Source of the DNA: Rhodospirillales bacterium
GTDB taxonomy: Bacteria; Pseudomonadota; Alphaproteobacteria; Acetobacterales; Acetobacteraceae
DNA: 50,673 nucleotides
Assembly (NCBI GenBank): GCA_028869315.1
Contig: JAGWSV010000031.1
Span: 1-50,673, forward strand
Reading direction: 5' to 3'
The translations under genes were made by a program, and so were the position numbers. This document shows, in pieces, positions 40,978 through 50,673 of this stretch (position 1 is its first letter; each line of letters begins with the position of its first letter). The notes beneath the pieces are model-generated. The model searched no databases and had not been told where the DNA came from. It saw only the letters and a program-made list of their open reading frames with translations.

Positions 40978-43620
40978 TTACCCGCCCAGCGCAGTGCGTA
41001 CCGCCGCCAGCGCCTCGTCCGCCTTGGTGGCGTCGGGCCCGCCGGCCTGCGCCAGGTCGGGCCGTCCCCCGCCGCCCTTGCCGCCCACCGCGGCGGCGGC
41101 CGCCCGTACCAGCTCGACGGCGCTGAAGCGGGGGGTGAGGTCCTTGGACACGCCGACCACGATGCTCGCCTTGCCTTCGGCGGTGGAAACCAGCGCGACC
41201 ACGCCGCTGCCGATCTGTTTGCCGATCGTCTCGGCGAGGCCCTTCAGTTCGCGCGCGGGCACGTCGCCCAGGTTGCGGGCCGCGAAGGCGGTGCCGGCGA
41301 CCGTTTCCGGACCCGTCGCGCCGGCGCCGCCGGTGGCGAGCTTCTTCTGCAACTCGGCGGACTGCCGCTCCAGCCGGCGGCGCTCCTCCTGGAGCGCGCC
41401 GATGCGCTCCGGCAGGTCGGCCGGGTTGGCGCGCAGCGCAGCGGCGGCTTCGCGCAGCAGGCGGGTTTCATCGGCGACTAGCTTCTCCGCCGCGAGTCCG
41501 GTGACCGCCTCGATGCGGCGTATCCCGGCGCTGACCGCGGTCTCGGACACGATGCGGAAATAGCCGATATCGCCGGTGCGGCGGACATGGGTCCCGCCGC
41601 ACAGCTCGATCGACCAGGCAAGCCGGTTACCTTCGGCCGCACCCATCGAAACGACCCGCACCTCTTCGCCGTATTTCTCCCCGAACAGCGCCATCGCGCC
41701 GAGCTCGACCGCAGCCGCCGGGGTCATCAGCCGGGTCACGACCTCGGAATTCTCCCGGATCCGGGCGTTCACCTCGGCTTCCACCGTGGCCAGCTCGTCA
41801 TCGGTGATCGGGCGCGGCTGGGAAATGTCGAAGCGCAGCCGGTCGGGCGCGTTCAGGCTGCCCTTCTGCGCCACATGGGTGCCGAGGGTGCGGCGCAGCG
41901 CCTCGTGCAGCAGGTGGGTCGCGGAGTGGTGCGCGCGGATCGCGCTCCGCCGCGCGTGCGCGACCTGCGCCACCACCGCCGTGCCGACCTGCGCGGTGCC
42001 CGCGGCCACCCGCCCGAGATGCACGATGAGGTCGCCGAGCTTGCGTTGGGTGTCGGTGATGTCGATGCGCAGTCCGCCTGGCCCGGTGATCGTGCCGGTA
42101 TCGCCGACCTGGCCGCCGCTCTCGCCATAGAACGGGCTCTGGTTCAGCACGACTGCGACCTCGGTCCCGGAGGGCGCGCTTTCCGCCGGCGTGCCGGCCA
42201 CGATCAGGGCCCGGATCTCGCCCTCGGCGGTCTCGGTGCTGTAGCCGAGGAACTCGCTGGCGCCGATGCGGTCGCGCAGTTCGTACCAGACGGTCTCGGT
42301 CGCGGCTTCGCCGGACCCGGCCCAGGCGGCGCGCGCACGGGCGCGCTGGGCGGCCATCGCCGCTTCGAATCCGGCGAGATCGACCTGACGGCCCTGCTCG
42401 CGCAGCGCGTCCTGCGTCAGGTCGAGCGGGAAGCCATAGGTGTCGTACAGCCGGAAGGCGATTTCGCCCGGCAGGGTGGCGCCTTCGCCGAGCCGGGCCG
42501 TTTCGTCGGCCAGCAGATGCAGGCCGCGTTCCAGCATGGCGGTGAAGCGGGTCTCCTCCAGCCGCAACGTCTCCTCGATCAGCGCCTCGGCGCGGCCGAG
42601 TTCGGGATAGGCGGCGCCCATCTGGCGCACCAGCGCAGGAACGAGCCGGTGCATCACCGGCTCCCGCGCGCCCATCAGGTGGATGTGGCGCATGGCGCGG
42701 CGCATGATGCGGCGCAGCACGTAGCCGCGGCCTTCGTTGGACGGCAGCACGCCGTCGGCCATCAGGAACGAGGTGCTGCGCAGATGGTCCGCCACCACCC
42801 GGTGGCTGATCCGATGCGGTCCATCCGGCTCTGTGCCGGTCGCTTCGGCGGAGGCGAGGATCAGGGCGCGGAACGTGTCCGTGTCGTAGTTGTCGTGCTT
42901 GCCCTGCAGAATGGCGGCGATCCGCTCAAGCCCCATGCCGGTGTCGATCGAGGGGCGCGGCAGGGCCACGCGGGTGCCCGGCGGACCCTCCTCGAACTGC
43001 ATGAACACGAGATTCCAGATCTCGATGAAGCGGTCGCCGTCCTCCTCGGCGCTGCCGGGCGGGCCGCCGGGGACGTCCGGCCCGTGGTCGTAGAATATCT
43101 CCGAACAGGGGCCGCAGGGACCGGTATCGCCCATGCGCCAGAAATTGTCGGAGGTGGGGATGCGGATGATGCGCTCCTCCGGCAGGCCGGCGACCTGCTT
43201 CCAATGGAGGGCGGCGGCGTCGTCCTCGGCGTAGACCGTGACCAGGAGCCGATCCTTGGGCAGGCCGTAATCGCGGGTTACCAGCTCCCACGCATAGGCG
43301 ATTGCTTGTTCCTTGAAGTAATCGCCGAAGCTGAAATTGCCCAGCATCTCGAAAAACGTATGATGTCGCGCGGTATAGCCGACGTTATCGAGATCGTTAT
43401 GCTTGCCGCCGGCCCGCACGCATTTCTGCGCCGTGGTGGCGCGATTGTAGGGACGCCTCTCCTGGCCGGTGAAGACGTTCTTGAACTGGACCATGCCAGC
43501 ATTGGTGAACAGCAAGGTCGGGTCGTTGCGCGGCACCAGCGGCGAGCTTTCGACCACCTGATGGCCGTGGCGGGCGAAGTAGTCGAGGAAGGCGGCACGG
43601 ATGTCGTTGCTGCTGGCCAT
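40978..43620 (-). CDS. alaS: Alanine-tRNA ligase
   Basis: The 880-aa product charges tRNA-Ala and edits mischarged Ser and Gly. The catalytic core begins with [20 protein letters not shown] and contains [16 protein letters not shown]. The editing domain has [12 protein letters not shown] and later [13 protein letters not shown], zinc-site residues. The C-terminal DHHA1 part has [18 protein letters not shown]. Length is standard. The frame extends 53 codons upstream, but ATG 43620 starts the conserved sequence. The gene lies divergent from the giant Hint-domain gene, with 198 bases between. Confidence 0.97.
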
Positions 43621-43818
43621 GGGGCGGCGGCGGGTCCTGGAAGCGGGGGCGGTCCGGAACGGACCGGGTCGAGCCGAGTTAACCCAATGGACAGGCTCTG
43701 TCACGCCGGAGCCGAGCGTGGGGCAGCGGATAGCGCCCATGGAGAATTCATTGATATTTGTTAAGGCGTCGATGAACAATGGCGCGTCATCCTAAGAAAC
43801 CGACCTGCGGAGTGCGGC

Positions 43819-46800
43819 ATGGCGGGCAATACTTTCTCCTGGATTGGCGGTACAGCCTCCGCCAACAGCCCCAGCGACTGGAGCCTGATCGCCGGACCGG
43901 TCGGGACGTCCGGGCCGCCGCACGCCGGCGATACGGTCATCATCACGTCCGGCGAGCCGATCTTGCCGCTGGACGCCACCCTGAGCGCCACCACCGTCGA
44001 GGTTGCCGGCACCGCCGGAGTCGCCTCGATCCTCTTTCAGGGCGATGGCGGCCTGACGCTGACGAACCCCACGGTCGACTCGCAGAGCGTGATCGAGTCC
44101 AGCGTGCAGGGGCAAAGCGGGCCGGGCGCGACGGTGCTGGACAGCCTCGGCACCTTCATCAACGAGGGCACGATCGCGGCCAACGGGACTCTCGGCAGCA
44201 GCTTCACCATCGACATCGCCCAGGGTACGTCCGGCAACGCCGGGATCTTCATCAACGACGGCGAGATCGATGTCGCCTCCGGCAACGCGATGACTATCGC
44301 GGTCGGCAACAACGCAGCCCTCTACAACGATTCCGCGATCCAGGTGCAGGGCGGGTCGCTGCTGATCACCGCTACCGGCACGCCGTTCGACGGCGGCTAC
44401 GCGCCGGTGCGCGGCGTCGTGGTGATCGGCGGCGGCGGCACAGTCGAGATCAACACCGGCTATACCGCATCGGCCGGCGGCGCGTTGCCGGTCTATGCGT
44501 TTGTCGACACCGCCAACAACTTGCTCAATCTCGACCAGGCGCCGCAGTTCAGCGGCGACATCGTCGGATTCGCCGCCGGCGACACGATCGACATCGGTGC
44601 GCAGGTGGTCACCGGGCTGAGCTACAGCGCCGCCGGCATCCTGACCCTGCAGGACGGCAGTGTCACCGTCGATTCGCTGCAACTGCTTACCGGTGGGTTC
44701 CAGACGGGTAGTTTCGCCGTCAGTGGCGGGGTTGCGGGCAGCTTTGCGATCACGACGTCCGGCACCGACACGGCGATCACGACCACGACGACCAACGAGG
44801 TCTGGAGTTCGACCACCGGCGGGTCCTGGGGGACAGCGAGCAACTGGGCCGGCGGCGTGGCACCGAGCGCAGGCGCCGCGGTCCAGATCGTGGGCGGTCA
44901 CGGCGGCAGCCAGACGATCACGACGGGAAGCACGGCCTATTCCCTGGCGTCGCTGCTGCTGGCCGGCGGCGGCACCACGCTGCAGGTGTCGGACAGCCTG
45001 ACCATCGGTCCCAACCTGCTGGCCCAGGGCGGCGGCCTGGTCGACGTCGCCAACGGCGGCTCGCTCACGGTCTCGGCGCTCAGCCAGGTCGGGTCCAGCT
45101 CGACCCTGCTGATCGAGGCAGGCGGGACCATGACGGCGACCGGTCATGCGAACCAAGGCTACGCCAACGCAGGAACGATCGCGATCACCAGCGGCGATAC
45201 CTACGCGCTGGGATTCACCGGGGGAGCCACGATCGATGGCGCGCTGAGCGCAGGCGGCGTGATCGCGCTCGGATTGGGCGGAGGCGGTTTCCCGGCGCAG
45301 GTCACGGTCGGGGCCGGTGGAACGGTCAGCGACACGTCCGCCGTGCTCGACGTCAACCCGACCAGTTCCAGCGTGCTGACCATCGCGGGGACGGGCGCGA
45401 GCTGGACCGACGCCATCGATCCCCATGACCCGCAGAATCAGCGTGGCTACATGCTGGTGGGGGTCAACACCCTCCAGGGCCCGGCGCCGATTGCGGGCGC
45501 GGCGACACTCACCGTCGGGGCCGGCGGCACTCTGACCGAACAGGCCTATGCCGACATCGGTGTAACGTCCAACAGTTCCGGCGTCGCTAACATCAACTCC
45601 GGCGGGGTCTGGAACATCGGCCTCACGACCGGAGGCTATATCGACGTCGGCGATTACGGCGCGGGAACGCTGAACATCGCCTCCGGCGGCAGCGTGGCGG
45701 TCGGGGGGATCGGCACGTTCCTGAACAATGGGACAAACTACACCGGTGGCGGCATCGGCATCGGTGCTGGGGCTCCGGGCGCCGGACTCGTCTCCGTCAG
45801 CGGCCGGCTCAGCACCAGCGGGTCCGGCATCGGCGTCGGCGTCAGCGGGTCCGGCACGCTGGACGTGTCCGGCAGCGGCACCGTTGCCGTTTCCGGCTCC
45901 GGCCACGGCATCGGCATTGCCCAGACGGTCGGGGCGTCGGGCACGCTCTCTGTGTCCGGGTCGCAGGCGCTGGTGACATTGGACAGTTCCTCGAACGGGA
46001 TCGGGGTCGGCAAGGCAGGAACCGGCCTTCTGGAAGTGCTTGGCGGCGGCACCGTCTCGGTGAGCGCGGGGGGGATCAGTGCCGGCGATTCGGCAGGTGC
46101 TGCGGGGGCGATCGTTGTGTCCGGTGCGGGCTCCAAGATCACAACCAACGGTACCAACGGTGGGATGGCCATCGGCAAAGCCGGGGCCGGCGCGCTGACG
46201 ATCACCGACGGTGGACTGGTCGCGATCCAGGGTACCGGCCACGACCTGCACATCGCCGGCACCGGCGCCGGACCGGGTGGCGGGTCCGGGGTGGTCGCGC
46301 TGGCGGCGGTCGGTTCCGGCCAGCCGGGCGGCACGCTCGACATCGGCGGCAACGCCTATGTCTGGGCCGGCGGCACCCTGACGCTGGACAGCGCATCGGG
46401 CGTCGATGTCGGCACCTCGGGTAGCTTCGCGGCTGGCGCGGTCGTCGTCGATGCCGGGCACATGCTGGCCGGTGACGGCAAGGTCTCCGCTGCTGTCGTT
46501 GACAGCGGCGAACTGGTCGCCACCAACTCGCCGACCCTGAGCGCCTCGACCGGTGGCACCCTGGAAATCGCAGGCACCGTCTCCGGCACCGGCAGCCTGG
46601 TGATGGCAGCGGGCGCCAGCCTGCAACTGGACAGCGCGCCCGCGGCCGGACCGACGATCGATTTCACCGCCGGAGCGCCGGAAAAGCTGATCTTCGGCAG
46701 CGGGCCGGGCACCATCGCCACCGCGATCTCCGGCGTGATCAACGGCGACGTGATGGCGTTTGGCGGCCTGACGCAGATTGCCAGCGCCGTTCTCAACGGC

Positions 46801-46941
46801 TCCACCCTGACGGTGAGCGGCACCTCGAGTCAGGGGGCGGCCAGCTACGAGTTGACCGGTTTGTCCGTCGCCACGGGGGTTGGCGCCAACCTGATCACCG
46901 GCACCGACCCGGCCAGCGGTGTTGCCTACGTGGCGTTCGCC
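43819..46941 (+). repeat. Super-repeat 1 of the giant protein (residues about 1-1041)
   Basis: Landmarks are VDSQSVIES (86), SSFTID..QGT, GNAMTI, GGGTVEINTG, the WGTASNWAGGVAP segment, RGYMLVG (542) and NGSTLTVSGT near the end. The same landmarks recur in order in super-repeat 2 at offsets of about 1041-1062 residues. A Ser/Gly-rich stretch (about 645-800) of short strand-loop units is longer here than in the second copy. Confidence 0.75.
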
Positions 46942-49900
46942 GGCAGCGATGTCTGGCAATGGATCAATCCGGGCACCGGCGCGGCCAACATTGCGAGCAA
47001 TTGGACCCTGCAATCCGGAGCGTCGACCACTGCCGGCTACCCGGTGGCGGGCGATACCGCGATCGTGCCCGTCGGCACCGTGCTCATCCCGCAGGACGCC
47101 CAATTCATCTCCAACACGATCGAAGTCGGCGGCACGGCCTCGGTCGCCGCGGCGGTTCTATCCGGCGATACGGCGGTGACCTGGGTTAATCCCAGCGTCG
47201 ATTCCAACTCCGTGATCGAATCCGCCAACACCGCCCAGAGCACGGCATCGCAGACCCTGCTCGACATCACCGGCCGCTTCGTCAACCAGGGCTCCATCCT
47301 CGCCAACGGCGCGCCGGGCAGCAGCTTCACGATCGATCTGGGCCAGGGCACGAACGGCGTCGCCGGGGCGTTCATCAACTACGACCGGATGATCGTGTCC
47401 GCCGGCAACGCGATGACCATTGTCGCCGGTCCGGGCGCCGCGTTCTTCAACGCCAGCCAGGTGGAGATCCAGGGCGGCACGCTCGATCTCACCACGAGCG
47501 GCACTGGCCAACTATACGGCGGCCTCGCACCTACCGACGGGCTCTATGTGATCTCCGGCGGCGGCACGGTGGAGGTGAACACCGGATTCCCGGCCGGGAC
47601 GGACGGCGCCAAGCCGCAGTTCGCCTTCGCCGATACCGCCGGGAACGTGCTGAAGCTCGACCAGCCGGGCCAGTTCGGCGGGCGCATCCTCGGGCTCGGT
47701 GCGGGCAACACGATCGACCTCGGCGCCGTCAACATCGGCACCCTGGCCTACGATCCCAGCGGGCTTTTGAAGGTCGAGGATGCGAGCGGCTCGCTGATCG
47801 CCTCGCTGGTGCTGTCGGCCGGGTCCTACGCCGCCGGCACGTTCACGGTCTCCGGCGCCAGCGCTACCGCCGGCAGTTTCGCGGTCACCGGCAACGGCAG
47901 CGACGCGCGGATCAGCACGTCCGGCAACACGGCCGCGTTCGAAACCTGGAACGGCGGCTCCGGGACGTTCACCGTCAACACCAACTGGTCGGGCGGCGTG
48001 GCGCCAGGCCCCGCCGACACCGCATTGATCGCCAGCAACGGCAACACCGCGTACGACGTGTCCACCGGGACCAGCGCGATCGCCGTTGACGGGCTGGTGG
48101 TGGCGGACGGCAACGCGACCTTGCAGGTTGCCGACTCGCTGTCCGTTACGCACGCCACCCTCGACGAATTCGGCGGCACCATCGACGTGCTGGGGACCGG
48201 CAGCCTCATCACCACGGCGCTGAACCAGAGTTCGGCACGCGCGAGCCTGCTGCTGGAGCAGGGCGCCACCCTCGATCTACTGGGCCATCCCAATCTCGGC
48301 TTCGCCAATGCCGGCACGCTGGTCGGCGCCACCGGCGGCACCGTCGGCCTGCTGGCGATGGGCAGCGTGGTGGTCGACGGCGCGGTGCTGAACGCCGGCC
48401 CCACCCAGGCCGCGTCGGGTGCGACCGGTGGGTTCATCGGCATCGGGGTGGACGGCGGCGGCACCGGTGCGTCCATGCTGGTACAGAGCGGCGCCACCCA
48501 GGGGGCCACCGTCACCGACACCTATGCCGTGCTTTCGTCCGACCCGACTTCGTTCGGCAGCCTGACCATCAGCGGGCCAGCGACCACCTGGACCGATGCC
48601 GGCGACCCCACGGATACCGGATCGACCCGCGGCTACATGCTGGTCGGGAACAACAACAGCGGCAGTCTGGTGCCGTATGCCGGAGCCGCCAGCCTGCTGG
48701 TGACCAACCAGGCGACCTTGACCGAAGCCAACTACGCCGTGATCGGCGATTCGGTCGACAGCGCCGGCAGCGTCACCATCGGCGGCCAAGCCGACTGGCA
48801 GATCGGCACCGGCCCAGGCGCGGCGGCGGGTTTCCTGACGGTCGGCCGCCACGGCCAGGGCGTGTTGACGATCGGCACGTCGGGGACGGGCGGGACGGTC
48901 TCGGTCGGCAGCGGCGGCACCTTCGTCAGCCAGGGGGTGACCAAGGTTGCGTCCTACGCGGTCGATATCGGGCAGAAGGCGGGCGCGGGCGGGTTCGTCT
49001 CGGTTTCACAGGCAGCGCAGTTGCTTGCCGCGGGCGACGTGATCGTCGGCGACGCCGGCCAGGCGCAGCTGGCAGTGTCGGGGACCGTCGCCGTCAGCGG
49101 CACGTCCGGCATCGTCATCGGCAAAAGCTTGGGTGCCGTTGGTCTGGCGCAGGTCAACGGCCCTGGCGGCGTTCTGGAAGCCCTGTCCGGCAGCCTGGTG
49201 GTCGGCGGCGTGGCCGGTTCTGGCAACGCCGCCGTCCTTGCCGTTGGCGGCTCCGCCCAGGTCATCGCCCAGCAGGTCACCATCAACGCGATCGCCGGAC
49301 TGGACTCCGGCGGCAGCCTGACCGGCACCGGCACCCTGACCGTGACCGCCACTGGCCACGTCACCGGCGCCAACGGCGCGAGCATCGATCCCACGGCCGG
49401 TGGTACAGCGACGGTGGTCAACGCCGGCACGATCGAGGCAACCTCCGGAGACTTCGAGGTCAACGGGGTTCTGGCCGGCTCGGGCACAGTGCAGATCGAT
49501 TCCGGCGCCACCATGGTGGTCGGCGGCCCGCTTATCGAAGGCCAAAGTTTCGACTTTGGTGCGACCACCGCCCCGACGGTGCTCGACTTCGTCTCGCCGA
49601 GCGCGACCATCACCAACGCGATCCAGAACCTGCAAGCCGGCGATGCCATCGTTCTGGAGAATTCTTCGACCATTTCCAACGTCTCGATAAACGGCTCCAC
49701 TTTGACCGTCACCGGGACGACTGCCGTAGGAGGCGGCGGTCCTCTCACCGAGACTTTCACCAACGTCACGCTGGCGCCGGGCGCGAGCCAAAGTTTCAAT
49801 ATCATATCGATATCGGATCCGTTCACCGGCGCGGCCACTGCCCAGGGGGTCGCACTGACGTTGCCCTGCTACGCTGCCGGCACGCGTATCGCCACCGTGC

Positions 49901-50673
49901 GTGGTGCGGTGCCGGTGGAGCGGCTGCGGATCGGCGATCTGGTGCGCACCGCCGGCGGCGCGCTGCGACCGGTGTGCTGGATCGGCTCGCGCCGCCTCGA
50001 CCTGGCGCGCCATCCCGAGCCGCGCAAGGCACGGCCGATCCGGATCCTGGCCGATGCCTTCGCCGACGGGGCGCCGACCCGCGATCTTGTGCTCTCGCCC
50101 GACCATGCGGTGTTCGATCGCGGGCGGCTGGTCCCGATCCGCCTGCTCGTCAACGACGCCACCATCCTGCGCGAGACCCGGCGGCGGACGGTGACCTATT
50201 TCCACGTGGAACTCGACAGCCACGACCTCCTACTGGCGGAAGGGCTGGCAGCCGAAAGCTATCTCGACACGGGAAATCGCGGCGTCTTCGAGAACGCAGA
50301 CGCTCCGATCGTCCTGCATCCTGATTTTACCGATCCGACCGAGCAGAACCGCCGCCGACTGGCGGCCTCGTGCGCTCCGCTGGTCGATGCGCCGCAGGAC
50401 GTGGAGCCGCTTTGGTGGCGGCTCGCCGATCGCGCCGCCGCGCTCGGGTTTGCGCTTCCGGCACCGGAAATGACCGACGAGCCGGCGCTGGCGCTGCAGT
50501 CGGGCGGGCGGCGCCTGCGCCCGCTCGCGCGCGACGGCGCCTGCTATCGCTTCGCCATGCCGGCGGGGCCGGCCTGGCTGGTGTCGCGCTCGGCCTACCC
50601 CTCCGATTCCCGGCCCTGGATCGAGGACCAGCGCCGGCTCGGCGTGATGGTGCGGCGCATGCAGCTGTCCTGC
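43819..50673 (+). CDS. Giant repetitive beta-rich protein with C-terminal Hint domain (3' end outside window)
   Basis: One frame runs without a stop from ATG 43819 (GGAG six bases upstream) to the window edge, at least 2285 residues. There is no signal peptide or membrane helix at the N-terminus (MAGNTFSWIGG...). The first about 2012 residues are rich in Gly, Ser, Thr, Ala and Val and poor in charge. They form two diverged super-repeats with W-x-x-x-N-W segments (for example WGTASNWAGGVAP, FTVNTNWSGGVAP) and short IGxGxxGxLxVSG strand-loop units of the kind found in beta-helical passengers. From about 2015 a Hint_2-type domain follows, with CYAAGT (Cys2017) and LSPDHAVF (His2096), then a Trp/Arg-rich C-terminal region. 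Such proteins are frequent in Acetobacteraceae and are thought to be secreted or surface-located, possibly by type I secretion. Function is unknown. Confidence 0.9.
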   Translation, partial: MAGNTFSWIGGTASANSPSDWSLIAGPVGTSGPPHAGDTVIITSGEPILPLDATLSATTVEVAGTAGVASILFQGDGGLTLTNPTVDSQSVIESSVQGQSGPGATVLDSLGTFINEGTIAANGTLGSSFTIDIAQGTSGNAGIFINDGEIDVASGNAMTIAVGNNAALYNDSAIQVQGGSLLITATGTPFDGGYAPVRGVVVIGGGGTVEINTGYTASAGGALPVYAFVDTANNLLNLDQAPQFSGDIVGFAAGDTIDIGAQVVTGLSYSAAGILTLQDGSVTVDSLQLLTGGFQTGSFAVSGGVAGSFAITTSGTDTAITTTTTNEVWSSTTGGSWGTASNWAGGVAPSAGAAVQIVGGHGGSQTITTGSTAYSLASLLLAGGGTTLQVSDSLTIGPNLLAQGGGLVDVANGGSLTVSALSQVGSSSTLLIEAGGTMTATGHANQGYANAGTIAITSGDTYALGFTGGATIDGALSAGGVIALGLGGGGFPAQVTVGAGGTVSDTSAVLDVNPTSSSVLTIAGTGASWTDAIDPHDPQNQRGYMLVGVNTLQGPAPIAGAATLTVGAGGTLTEQAYADIGVTSNSSGVANINSGGVWNIGLTTGGYIDVGDYGAGTLNIASGGSVAVGGIGTFLNNGTNYTGGGIGIGAGAPGAGLVSVSGRLSTSGSGIGVGVSGSGTLDVSGSGTVAVSGSGHGIGIAQTVGASGTLSVSGSQALVTLDSSSNGIGVGKAGTGLLEVLGGGTVSVSAGGISAGDSAGAAGAIVVSGAGSKITTNGTNGGMAIGKAGAGALTITDGGLVAIQGTGHDLHIAGTGAGPGGGSGVVALAAVGSGQPGGTLDIGGNAYVWAGGTLTLDSASGVDVGTSGSFAAGAVVVDAGHMLAGDGKVSAAVVDSGELVATNSPTLSASTGGTLEIAGTVSGTGSLVMAAGASLQLDSAPAAGPTIDFTAGAPEKLIFGSGPGTIATAISGVINGDVMAFGGLTQIASAVLNGSTLTVSGTSSQGAASYELTGLSVATGVGANLITGTDPASGVAYVAFAGSDVWQWINPGTGAANIASNWTLQSGASTTAGYPVAGDTAIVPVGTVLIPQDAQFISNTIEVGGTASVAAAVLSGDTAVTWVNPSVDSNSVIESANTAQSTASQTLLDITGRFVNQGSILANGAPGSSFTIDLGQGTNGVAGAFINYDRMIVSAGNAMTIVAGPGAAFFNASQVEIQGGTLDLTTSGTGQLYGGLAPTDGLYVISGGGTVEVNTGFPAGTDGAKPQFAFADTAGNVLKLDQPGQFGGRILGLGAGNTIDLGAVNIGTLAYDPSGLLKVEDASGSLIASLVLSAGSYAAGTFTVSGASATAGSFAVTGNGSDARISTSGNTAAFETWNGGSGTFTVNTNWSGGVAPGPADTALIASNGNTAYDVSTGTSAIAVDGLVVADGNATLQVADSLSVTHATLDEFGGTIDVLGTGSLITTALNQSSARASLLLEQGATLDLLGHPNLGFANAGTLVGATGGTVGLLAMGSVVVDGAVLNAGPTQAASGATGGFIGIGVDGGGTGASMLVQSGATQGATVTDTYAVLSSDPTSFGSLTISGPATTWTDAGDPTDTGSTRGYMLVGNNNSGSLVPYAGAASLLVTNQATLTEANYAVIGDSVDSAGSVTIGGQADWQIGTGPGAAAGFLTVGRHGQGVLTIGTSGTGGTVSVGSGGTFVSQGVTKVASYAVDIGQKAGAGGFVSVSQAAQLLAAGDVIVGDAGQAQLAVSGTVAVSGTSGIVIGKSLGAVGLAQVNGPGGVLEALSGSLVVGGVAGSGNAAVLAVGGSAQVIAQQVTINAIAGLDSGGSLTGTGTLTVTATGHVTGANGASIDPTAGGTATVVNAGTIEATSGDFEVNGVLAGSGTVQIDSGATMVVGGPLIEGQSFDFGATTAPTVLDFVSPSATITNAIQNLQAGDAIVLENSSTISNVSINGSTLTVTGTTAVGGGGPLTETFTNVTLAPGASQSFNIISISDPFTGAATAQGVALTLPCYAAGTRIATVRGAVPVERLRIGDLVRTAGGALRPVCWIGSRRLDLARHPEPRKARPIRILADAFADGAPTRDLVLSPDHAVFDRGRLVPIRLLVNDATILRETRRRTVTYFHVELDSHDLLLAEGLAAESYLDTGNRGVFENADAPIVLHPDFTDPTEQNRRRLAASCAPLVDAPQDVEPLWWRLADRAAALGFALPAPEMTDEPALALQSGGRRLRPLARDGACYRFAMPAGPAWLVSRSAYPSDSRPWIEDQRRLGVMVRRMQLSC
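46942..49854 (+). repeat. Super-repeat 2 of the giant protein (residues about 1042-2012)
   Basis: Matching landmarks are VDSNSVIES (1127), GSSFTIDLGQGT, GNAMTIV, GGGTVEVNTG, TVNTNWSGGVAP, RGYMLVG (1604) and NGSTLTVTGT. The copy is diverged at both protein and DNA level, so the duplication is old. It ends directly at the Hint domain, which suggests the repeat is a unit inserted or doubled in front of that domain. Confidence 0.75.
49855..50310 (+). other. Hint (Hedgehog/intein-type) domain within the giant protein
   Basis: Within residues about 2013-2164 the start block CYAAGTRIATVRG holds Cys2017, the predicted nucleophile. IGDLVRTAGG forms the following turn, and DLVLSPDHAVF provides His2096, equivalent to the conserved His of the second Hint block. 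The end motif of splicing inteins (HN followed by Cys/Ser/Thr) is not evident, so self-cleavage rather than splicing is more likely, if the domain is active at all. Confidence 0.8.

What the first reader, a model, noticed from the sequence alone, without database searches (positions are those of the whole stretch)
43819..50673. Giant Hint-domain protein built from two super-repeats of about 1000 residues
At least 2285 codons are open without a stop. Ordered landmarks (VDSxSVIES, GNAMTI, WxxxxNWxGGVAP, RGYMLVG, NGSTLTVxGT) occur twice at a near-constant spacing, and the second copy ends exactly where the Hint domain begins. Large internal duplications placed directly before a Hint domain suggest a modular passenger with a processing or attachment unit at the end. 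This could be a new adhesin, matrix or contact-dependent factor.
Basis: partly seen in the sequence, partly recalled or inferred. Interest (0 to 1): 0.65.

Follow-up and report, generated by a model that had tools for sequence, protein, structure and literature searches.

The report
Giant adhesin-like protein with self-cleaving tail
An uncultured acetic-acid-bacteria relative encodes a 2361-residue adhesin-like protein made of two copies of a roughly 1000-residue unit, followed by a hedgehog/intein-type domain predicted to cut it off from a C-terminal domain not in Pfam; the same C-terminal pair sits on dozens of unrelated, apparently extracellular proteins in this family.

Summary
The ORF is intact and ends 76 codons beyond the window on an overlapping contig (2361 aa). 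Residues 1-1043 and 1044-2015 are homologous units (44% identity; score 1435 against a shuffled maximum of 332), and the second stops next to the Hint Cys1 (residue 2017). Each unit is a module A plus a module B, resembling autotransporter beta-helix passengers such as Ag43. Other Acetobacteraceae have A-B-Hint and A-A-B-Hint, so these are old shuffled modules, not a recent duplication.

Beyond the brief: Hint_2 plus a ~185-aa domain absent from Pfam (C-dom) forms a constant C-terminal unit (Cys1 to stop 309-362 aa) on passengers as different as adhesins, a cellulase, a matrixin and a trypsin-like protease. None of 62 relatives showed an N-terminal signal peptide by a crude test. Cys1, block B His and block F His are conserved, but the intein C-terminal His-Asn is Glu-Ser, predicting Hedgehog-like cleavage at the passenger/Hint junction only. 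C-dom also occurs on glycosyltransferases and NRPS-like enzymes.

Best reading: an exported, self-processed surface or matrix adhesin; hydrolytic release versus attachment is untested. Polymorphic-toxin architecture is not met. New variant of a known kind.

The parts
43819..50673 (+). CDS of the giant Hint_2 protein (2285 codons in the window; full protein 2361 aa, ending on contig C300)
43809..43812 (+). GGAG, probable ribosome-binding site 6 bases before the ATG
   Evidence: read by eye
43819..44841 (+). module A, copy 1 (residues 1-341)
   Evidence: A profile
44800..46956 (+). module B, copy 1 (residues 328-1046), with W..NW.GG.AP start, repeat zone and C-cap
   Evidence: B profile
46081..46221 (+). 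best of the TIGR04393 T5SS/PEP-CTERM-associated repeats (residues 755-801)
   Evidence: E 3.6e-6, over cut-off
46948..47982 (+). module A, copy 2 (residues 1044-1388), 48% identical to copy 1
47944..49863 (+). module B, copy 2 (residues 1376-2015), lacking part of the repeat zone; ends next to the Hint domain
49864..50271 (+). Hint_2 domain PF13403 (residues 2016-2151)
49867..49869 (+). Cys1 (residue 2017), predicted nucleophile; predicted cleavage is just before it
50095..50106 (+). block B S-P-D-H (residues 2093-2096; His2096)
50203..50223 (+). block F H2129-V-E2131-x-x-x-H2135
50254..50259 (+). block G position: Glu2146-Ser2147 in place of intein His-Asn
50296..50673 (+). C-dom, ~185-aa C-terminal domain without Pfam match (truncated by the contig end; finishes at C300:7-330)

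Best explanation
It is a secreted or surface-displayed adhesin or matrix protein. Two large beta-helical units (A-B-A-B) are the passenger. The last ~345 residues are a constant processing unit: a Hint_2 domain plus an accessory C-dom. After folding, and probably after export, Cys2017 attacks the preceding peptide bond (N-S acyl shift, helped by the block B and F histidines) and makes a thioester between the passenger and the Hint domain. Because the intein C-terminal His-Asn is missing, no splicing or C-terminal cleavage follows. The thioester is resolved by hydrolysis (release) or by an outside nucleophile (attachment), so the passenger parts from Hint and C-dom. Shown: the anatomy, homology, Hint fold (in a close relative's model), residue conservation, beta-helix-like passenger, constant unit on many passengers, and the presence of a type I exporter in the genome. 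Inferred: that it is exported by a signal in the C-terminal unit, that it cleaves itself, and that it works in adhesion or the matrix.
For: Hint_2 E 4.6e-44. Predicted constant unit (close relative, pLDDT 91) matches a bacterial intein-like domain (2lwy, Z 12.9, 116 residues, 2.1 A) and the Hedgehog Hint domain (1at0, Z 11.0). In sequences not gathered by a motif, Cys1 is kept in 47 of 48, the block B His in 98%, the block F His residues in 94 and 98%, and Glu replaces the block G His in all 49; Glu-Ser also in A3. Cys1 to stop is 309-362 aa whatever the passenger length. Passenger: T5SS/PEP-CTERM repeats; nearest solved structures Ag43b and TibA passengers (E ~5e-5); no Cys and very few Lys/Arg in 2015 residues. 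Relatives' passengers include AIDA repeats, GH5 cellulase, matrixin, trypsin-like and subtilase domains. None of 62 has a Sec-like N-terminus by a heuristic that a solute-binding-protein control passed. The genome has an ABC exporter plus HlyD pair at C130.
Against: Nothing here shows cleavage, export or adhesion. The passenger model is of low confidence (mean pLDDT 58.7). No secretion genes adjoin this gene, and no exporter family recurred beside 78 relatives. Type I exporters are near-universal in the family, so co-occurrence has no power. The Asp that is the general base in Hedgehog is not conserved.
Confidence: 0.6

Rival explanations
1. Hedgehog-like conjugation: C-dom is a recognition domain that presents a cell-envelope glycan hydroxyl or an amine to the Hint thioester, so the passenger ends up covalently attached to the surface or matrix.
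For: C-dom occupies the place that the sterol recognition region (SRR), or adduct recognition region, has in Hog proteins (PMC9163320, PMC2362128). The same domain is fused to glycosyltransferases, a methyltransferase-containing protein and NRPS-like enzymes, which suggests a glycan or envelope ligand. In this genome the second Hint_2 gene lies beside an O-antigen ligase gene, and the type I exporter beside glycosyltransferases.
Against: No ligand, no acceptor and no conjugate was observed. The Hedgehog general-base Asp is His or Arg in most members. C-dom fusions with AMP-binding enzymes do not point to glycans.
Confidence: 0.2
2. The Hint domain only removes the export signal: the C-terminal unit carries a type I secretion signal and is cut off by hydrolysis after export, with no attachment.
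For: No N-terminal signal peptide, the only shared part of diverse passengers is C-terminal, and a type I exporter is present.
Against: No linkage to exporter genes; most passengers carry no RTX repeats (one of 51).
Confidence: 0.4
3. Polymorphic (contact-dependent) toxin in which the Hint domain releases a C-terminal toxin.
For: Large repetitive N-terminal part followed by a Hint domain, as in some MafB-type proteins (PMC7738311).
Against: The region after the Hint domain is one conserved domain in all relatives and the variable part precedes it; no toxin family was matched.
Confidence: 0.03
4. A classical autotransporter that has lost its barrel: the protein is an unexported relic.
For: Autotransporter-like passenger without a beta-barrel or signal peptide.
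Against: Intact 2361-codon frame with conserved active site; the architecture recurs across many genera.
Confidence: 0.05

Closest known systems
Hint_2 (PF13403) proteins of Alphaproteobacteria
   Same: Same Hint family (E 4.6e-44), at the C-terminus of variable proteins.
   Different: Acetobacteraceae copies carry an extra ~185-aa C-dom that a genome with 17 Hint_2 matches in another family lacks; this member is unusually large with an A-B-A-B passenger.
Hedgehog C-terminal (Hog) domain
   Same: Hint fold, Cys1, block B His; N-terminal acyl shift only; a second domain follows the Hint fold.
   Different: No Asp at the Hint-46 position; C-dom is larger than the sterol recognition region and its ligand is unknown.
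Bacterial intein-like (BIL) domains
   Same: Closest solved structure by fold (2lwy, Z 12.9) and by profile (E 1.2e-4 over block A).
   Different: C-terminal His-Asn replaced by Glu-Ser, so no C-terminal cleavage is expected; the unit is terminal, not inserted.
Autotransporter adhesin passengers (Ag43, TibA, AIDA-I)
   Same: Beta-helix-like passenger, T5SS-associated repeats; five relatives carry AIDA repeats.
   Different: No barrel and no signal peptide; a Hint_2 plus C-dom unit sits where the barrel would be.
MafB and similar Hint-bearing polymorphic toxins
   Same: A Hint domain near the C-terminus of a large exported protein.
   Different: Constant region after Hint, variable passenger before it: the reverse of toxin architecture.

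Membership tests
Hint_2 (PF13403) | Profile match over the gathering cut-off | tested here: met
   150.8 bits against a cut-off of 28.4
Hint superfamily | Hint fold | tested here: met
   Close relative modelled at pLDDT 91; Z 11-12.9 to inteins, BIL and Hedgehog
Hint superfamily | Nucleophile at position 1 and block B His | tested here: met
Intein / BIL domain | C-terminal His-Asn for Asn cyclisation | tested here: not met
   Glu-Ser at the equivalent position, located by the structural alignment range of 6riy
Hedgehog Hog domain | Asp at Hint position 46 (general base) | tested here: not met
   His 29, Arg 19, others; Ser in this protein; position assigned by eye from sequence (role from PMC9163320)
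Hedgehog Hog domain | Sterol recognition region and cholesterol transfer | not testable with these tools
   A C-terminal domain is present at that place; its ligand is unknown
Type Va autotransporter | C-terminal beta-barrel | tested here: not met
   No Pfam barrel in the window protein; C-terminus is Hint_2 plus C-dom
Type Va autotransporter | Sec signal peptide | tested here: not met
   Heuristic only
Type Va autotransporter | Beta-helix passenger | tested here: inconclusive
   Low-confidence model; best hits Ag43b and TibA
RTX type I secretion adhesin | RTX repeats | tested here: not met
   No PF00353 match
RTX type I secretion adhesin | Adjacent exporter genes | tested here: not met
   exporter elsewhere in the genome
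Polymorphic toxin | Variable toxin domain after the Hint domain | tested here: not met
   Conserved C-dom instead

The most novel reading that the evidence does not exclude
Hint_2 plus C-dom is a Hedgehog-like conjugation unit of Acetobacteraceae: it exports diverse proteins without N-terminal signals and joins their C-termini covalently to an envelope or exopolysaccharide acceptor recognised by C-dom. This would be a bacterial sorting system based on a self-acting Hint domain instead of a sortase-like enzyme.
Probability: 0.13. Interest if true: 0.85.

Novelty: new variant of a known kind. Interest (0 to 1): 0.47.

Why it matters
Hint_2 proteins are abundant (up to 22 matches per genome in this family), and no functional study of them turned up in the open-access library searched. 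The anatomy makes concrete predictions: a cut before Cys1, no splicing, and a thioester that could be hydrolysed or conjugated. The constant C-terminal pair on adhesins, proteases and a cellulase, with C-dom also on glycosyltransferases, points to a general handling system for exoproteins that can be tested with one construct.

Tried and rejected
A first genome-contig scan with module A-B alone found no relative; the Hint plus C-dom alignment found over 500. Looked for a shared neighbourhood around 78 relatives: apart from generic ABC-transporter and histidine-kinase genes and further beta-solenoid genes, only CRP/FNR-like regulators (3 loci), TPR-type genes (3) and a dehydratase-like family (3) recurred. 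Considered co-occurrence with type I exporters: no power, since nearly all genomes have HlyD. Considered misassembly of the repeat: rejected, because the copies differ at more than half of their residues. Considered recent duplication: rejected, because B1 groups with a sister species' B (96/95 support) to the exclusion of B2, and A1 is 63% identical to that species' A against 48% to A2; the deeper A tree is unresolved. ORF 41587-43764 (+) was rejected as antisense to alaS.

Full report
Observation. The window is one contig (C166) of a 3.9-Mb, 360-contig genome. By family-level kinship and by named relatives it belongs to Acetobacteraceae. The + strand ORF at 43819 is open to the contig end. 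Contig C300 shares an exact 141-bp overlap with the window end and completes the frame at a TAA, for a protein of 2361 aa. The join is supported by an unbroken profile match through it (residues 2012-2338). Codon-position GC is of coding type. An ORF listed upstream (41587-43764) is antisense to alaS, which is divergent from this gene. Downstream are an acyl-carrier-like protein and an MBOAT acyltransferase.

The super-repeat. Residues 57-1036 and 1098-2006 align with 385 of 875 identities, score 1435 against a shuffled maximum of 332. A stricter control, shuffling 20-aa blocks, gave at most 501 against 1537 for the full halves. Landmark spacings are 1041, 1041, 1047, 1062 and 965. Each half is a module A of about 340 aa followed by a module B of 640-720 aa. 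Module B opens with the W..NW.GG.AP motif, carries T5SS/PEP-CTERM-associated repeats (TIGR04393) and ends in a cap that abuts the Hint domain.

The modules elsewhere. In 200 family genomes, module A was found strongly in a few proteins and weakly in others, 24 genomes in all. A same-genus protein (G004, 2045 aa) is A-B, then a further B-like repeat stretch, then Hint. Two others (G141, G225) are A-A-B-Hint, and G194 (the same contig as L076) is a partial A-B-Hint. In trees, B1 of this protein groups with the G004 B (96/95) apart from B2; A1 is 63% identical to the G004 A but 48% to A2. The two units therefore diverged before these species did, or the second came from a paralogue. The A-B-A-B order was seen only here, within the genomes searched.

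The passenger. It has no Cys and very few Lys and Arg in 2015 residues. A model of residues 1-1046 from three sequences is of low confidence overall (pLDDT 58.7), but the stretch 560-810 is a better-predicted run of short strands. The best solved matches are Ag43b, TibA and Ag43 autotransporter passengers. A beta-helix adhesin-like passenger is thus likely, not proven.

The C-terminal unit. Pfam finds only Hint_2. A profile with 70 relatives gave a model of pLDDT 91 for a 57%-identical relative. Its residues 9-146 match bacterial intein-like, intein, Vint and Hedgehog Hint domains (Z 11-12.9). Cys1 is residue 2017. Conservation was counted on two sets. A3 (70 rows) was fetched with a block F motif and only rows with a Cys1 pattern were kept, so its invariance at those positions is partly built in. 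The independent set has Cys1 in 47 of 48, block B His in 98%, block F His in 94 and 98%, and block G Glu in 49 of 49. By the structural alignment range, that Glu-Ser sits where inteins have His-Asn. A few copies (L180, L181 in one genome) lack Cys1 and look degenerate. The prediction is acyl shift and N-terminal scission without splicing. The Hedgehog general-base position is mostly His or Arg (role from PMC9163320).

A constant unit on varied proteins. In 78 relatives the distance from Cys1 to stop is 309-362 aa in complete genes while the part before it ranges from about 20 to 2170 aa. Passengers include AIDA-type repeats (5 of 51), TIGR04393 repeats (5), strand-loop-strand repeats (5) and single cases of GH5 cellulase, matrixin, trypsin-like, subtilase, lipase and RTX domains. 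Three were confirmed against solved structures: endocellulase E1/CelE2 (3e-33), matrix metalloproteinases (1e-13) and a glutamyl endopeptidase (2e-5). None of 62 tested N-termini looked like a Sec signal peptide by a hydrophobicity-and-charge heuristic that a solute-binding-protein control passed; a trained predictor was not available. Enzymes that normally work outside the cell, without an N-terminal signal and with one shared C-terminal unit, suggest that the export information is C-terminal. That is inference. This genome has an ABC exporter and HlyD pair at C130 among glycosyltransferases, but no linkage to Hint genes was found.

C-dom. The ~185 residues after the Hint domain match no Pfam family and no solved structure by sequence. 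They occur in 32 of 36 family genomes and in none of 24 genomes from other families, including one with 17 Hint_2 matches; in a class-wide sample only two weak matches lay outside the family (with a reduced number of candidates scored). Scattered named relatives in Methylobacterium and others show some spread. Ten family proteins carry C-dom without Hint_2: three have clear or weak glycosyltransferase domains, two are AMP-binding/PP-binding (NRPS-like) proteins, one has a methyltransferase domain, and four have no Pfam match. By eye, some of the unmatched ones look like glycosyltransferases. C-dom is therefore a mobile accessory domain of probably envelope-related enzymes as well as of Hint proteins.

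Mechanism. Most likely an exported adhesin or matrix protein whose passenger is separated from Hint and C-dom by self-cleavage (confidence 0.6). Whether the thioester is hydrolysed or captured by an acceptor is open; the two sub-readings are listed as rivals and are not exclusive of the main one. The position of C-dom is that of the sterol or adduct recognition region of Hog proteins (PMC9163320, PMC2362128), which makes conjugation a fair but unproven possibility (0.13-0.2). Toxin architecture is contradicted.

What is known. Hint_2 is a catalogued family. The RTX review noted nine putative RTX proteins with weak Hedgehog/intein homology (PMC3034196), and a bloom study found Hint and RTX domains over-represented in fast-responding Rhodobacteraceae (PMC12487129). 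I found no functional study of Hint_2 proteins or description of C-dom in the open-access library; subscription papers were not searchable, so 'undescribed' is not claimed. Verdict: a real feature, a new variant of a known kind.

Noticed in passing
L170-L179: C-dom occurs without Hint_2 in glycosyltransferases, NRPS-like AMP-binding/PP-binding proteins and a methyltransferase-containing protein; it has no Pfam model.
   Followed up: partly
L072 8263-9039, L073 8196-8969, L089 191-997: CRP/FNR-like regulator genes lie 40-354 bp from a Hint_2 gene in three loci, two of them Rhodopila.
   Followed up: no
L183 (G028:C35) and L184 (G034:C1): Three Hint_2 plus C-dom genes stand in tandem in each of these loci.
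   Followed up: no
L180 2984-4129 (-), L181 2771-4201 (-): Degenerate Hint domains without Cys1, still followed by C-dom, both in one genome (G025).
   Followed up: partly
L026 10389-12611 (-), contig C249 of the same genome: Second Hint_2 protein of this genome; its passenger has HEITEVLGR, which looks like a metalloprotease zinc site, and an O-antigen ligase (Wzy_C) gene follows it.
   Followed up: partly
L088 3338-17094: Row of several beta-solenoid-like genes around one Hint_2 gene.
   Followed up: no
L100 14274-16547: By eye a HlyB-like ABC exporter with a C39-like N-terminus, 7.5 kb from a Hint_2 gene; the only such case noticed.
   Followed up: no
L093 and L113: Contigs labelled Solirubrobacterales and Terriglobia carry the Acetobacteraceae-type unit: binning error or gene transfer.
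   Followed up: no
window 41587-43764 (+): Long open frame antisense to alaS, an effect of high G+C; many other long antisense frames in the window are probably of this kind.
   Followed up: yes
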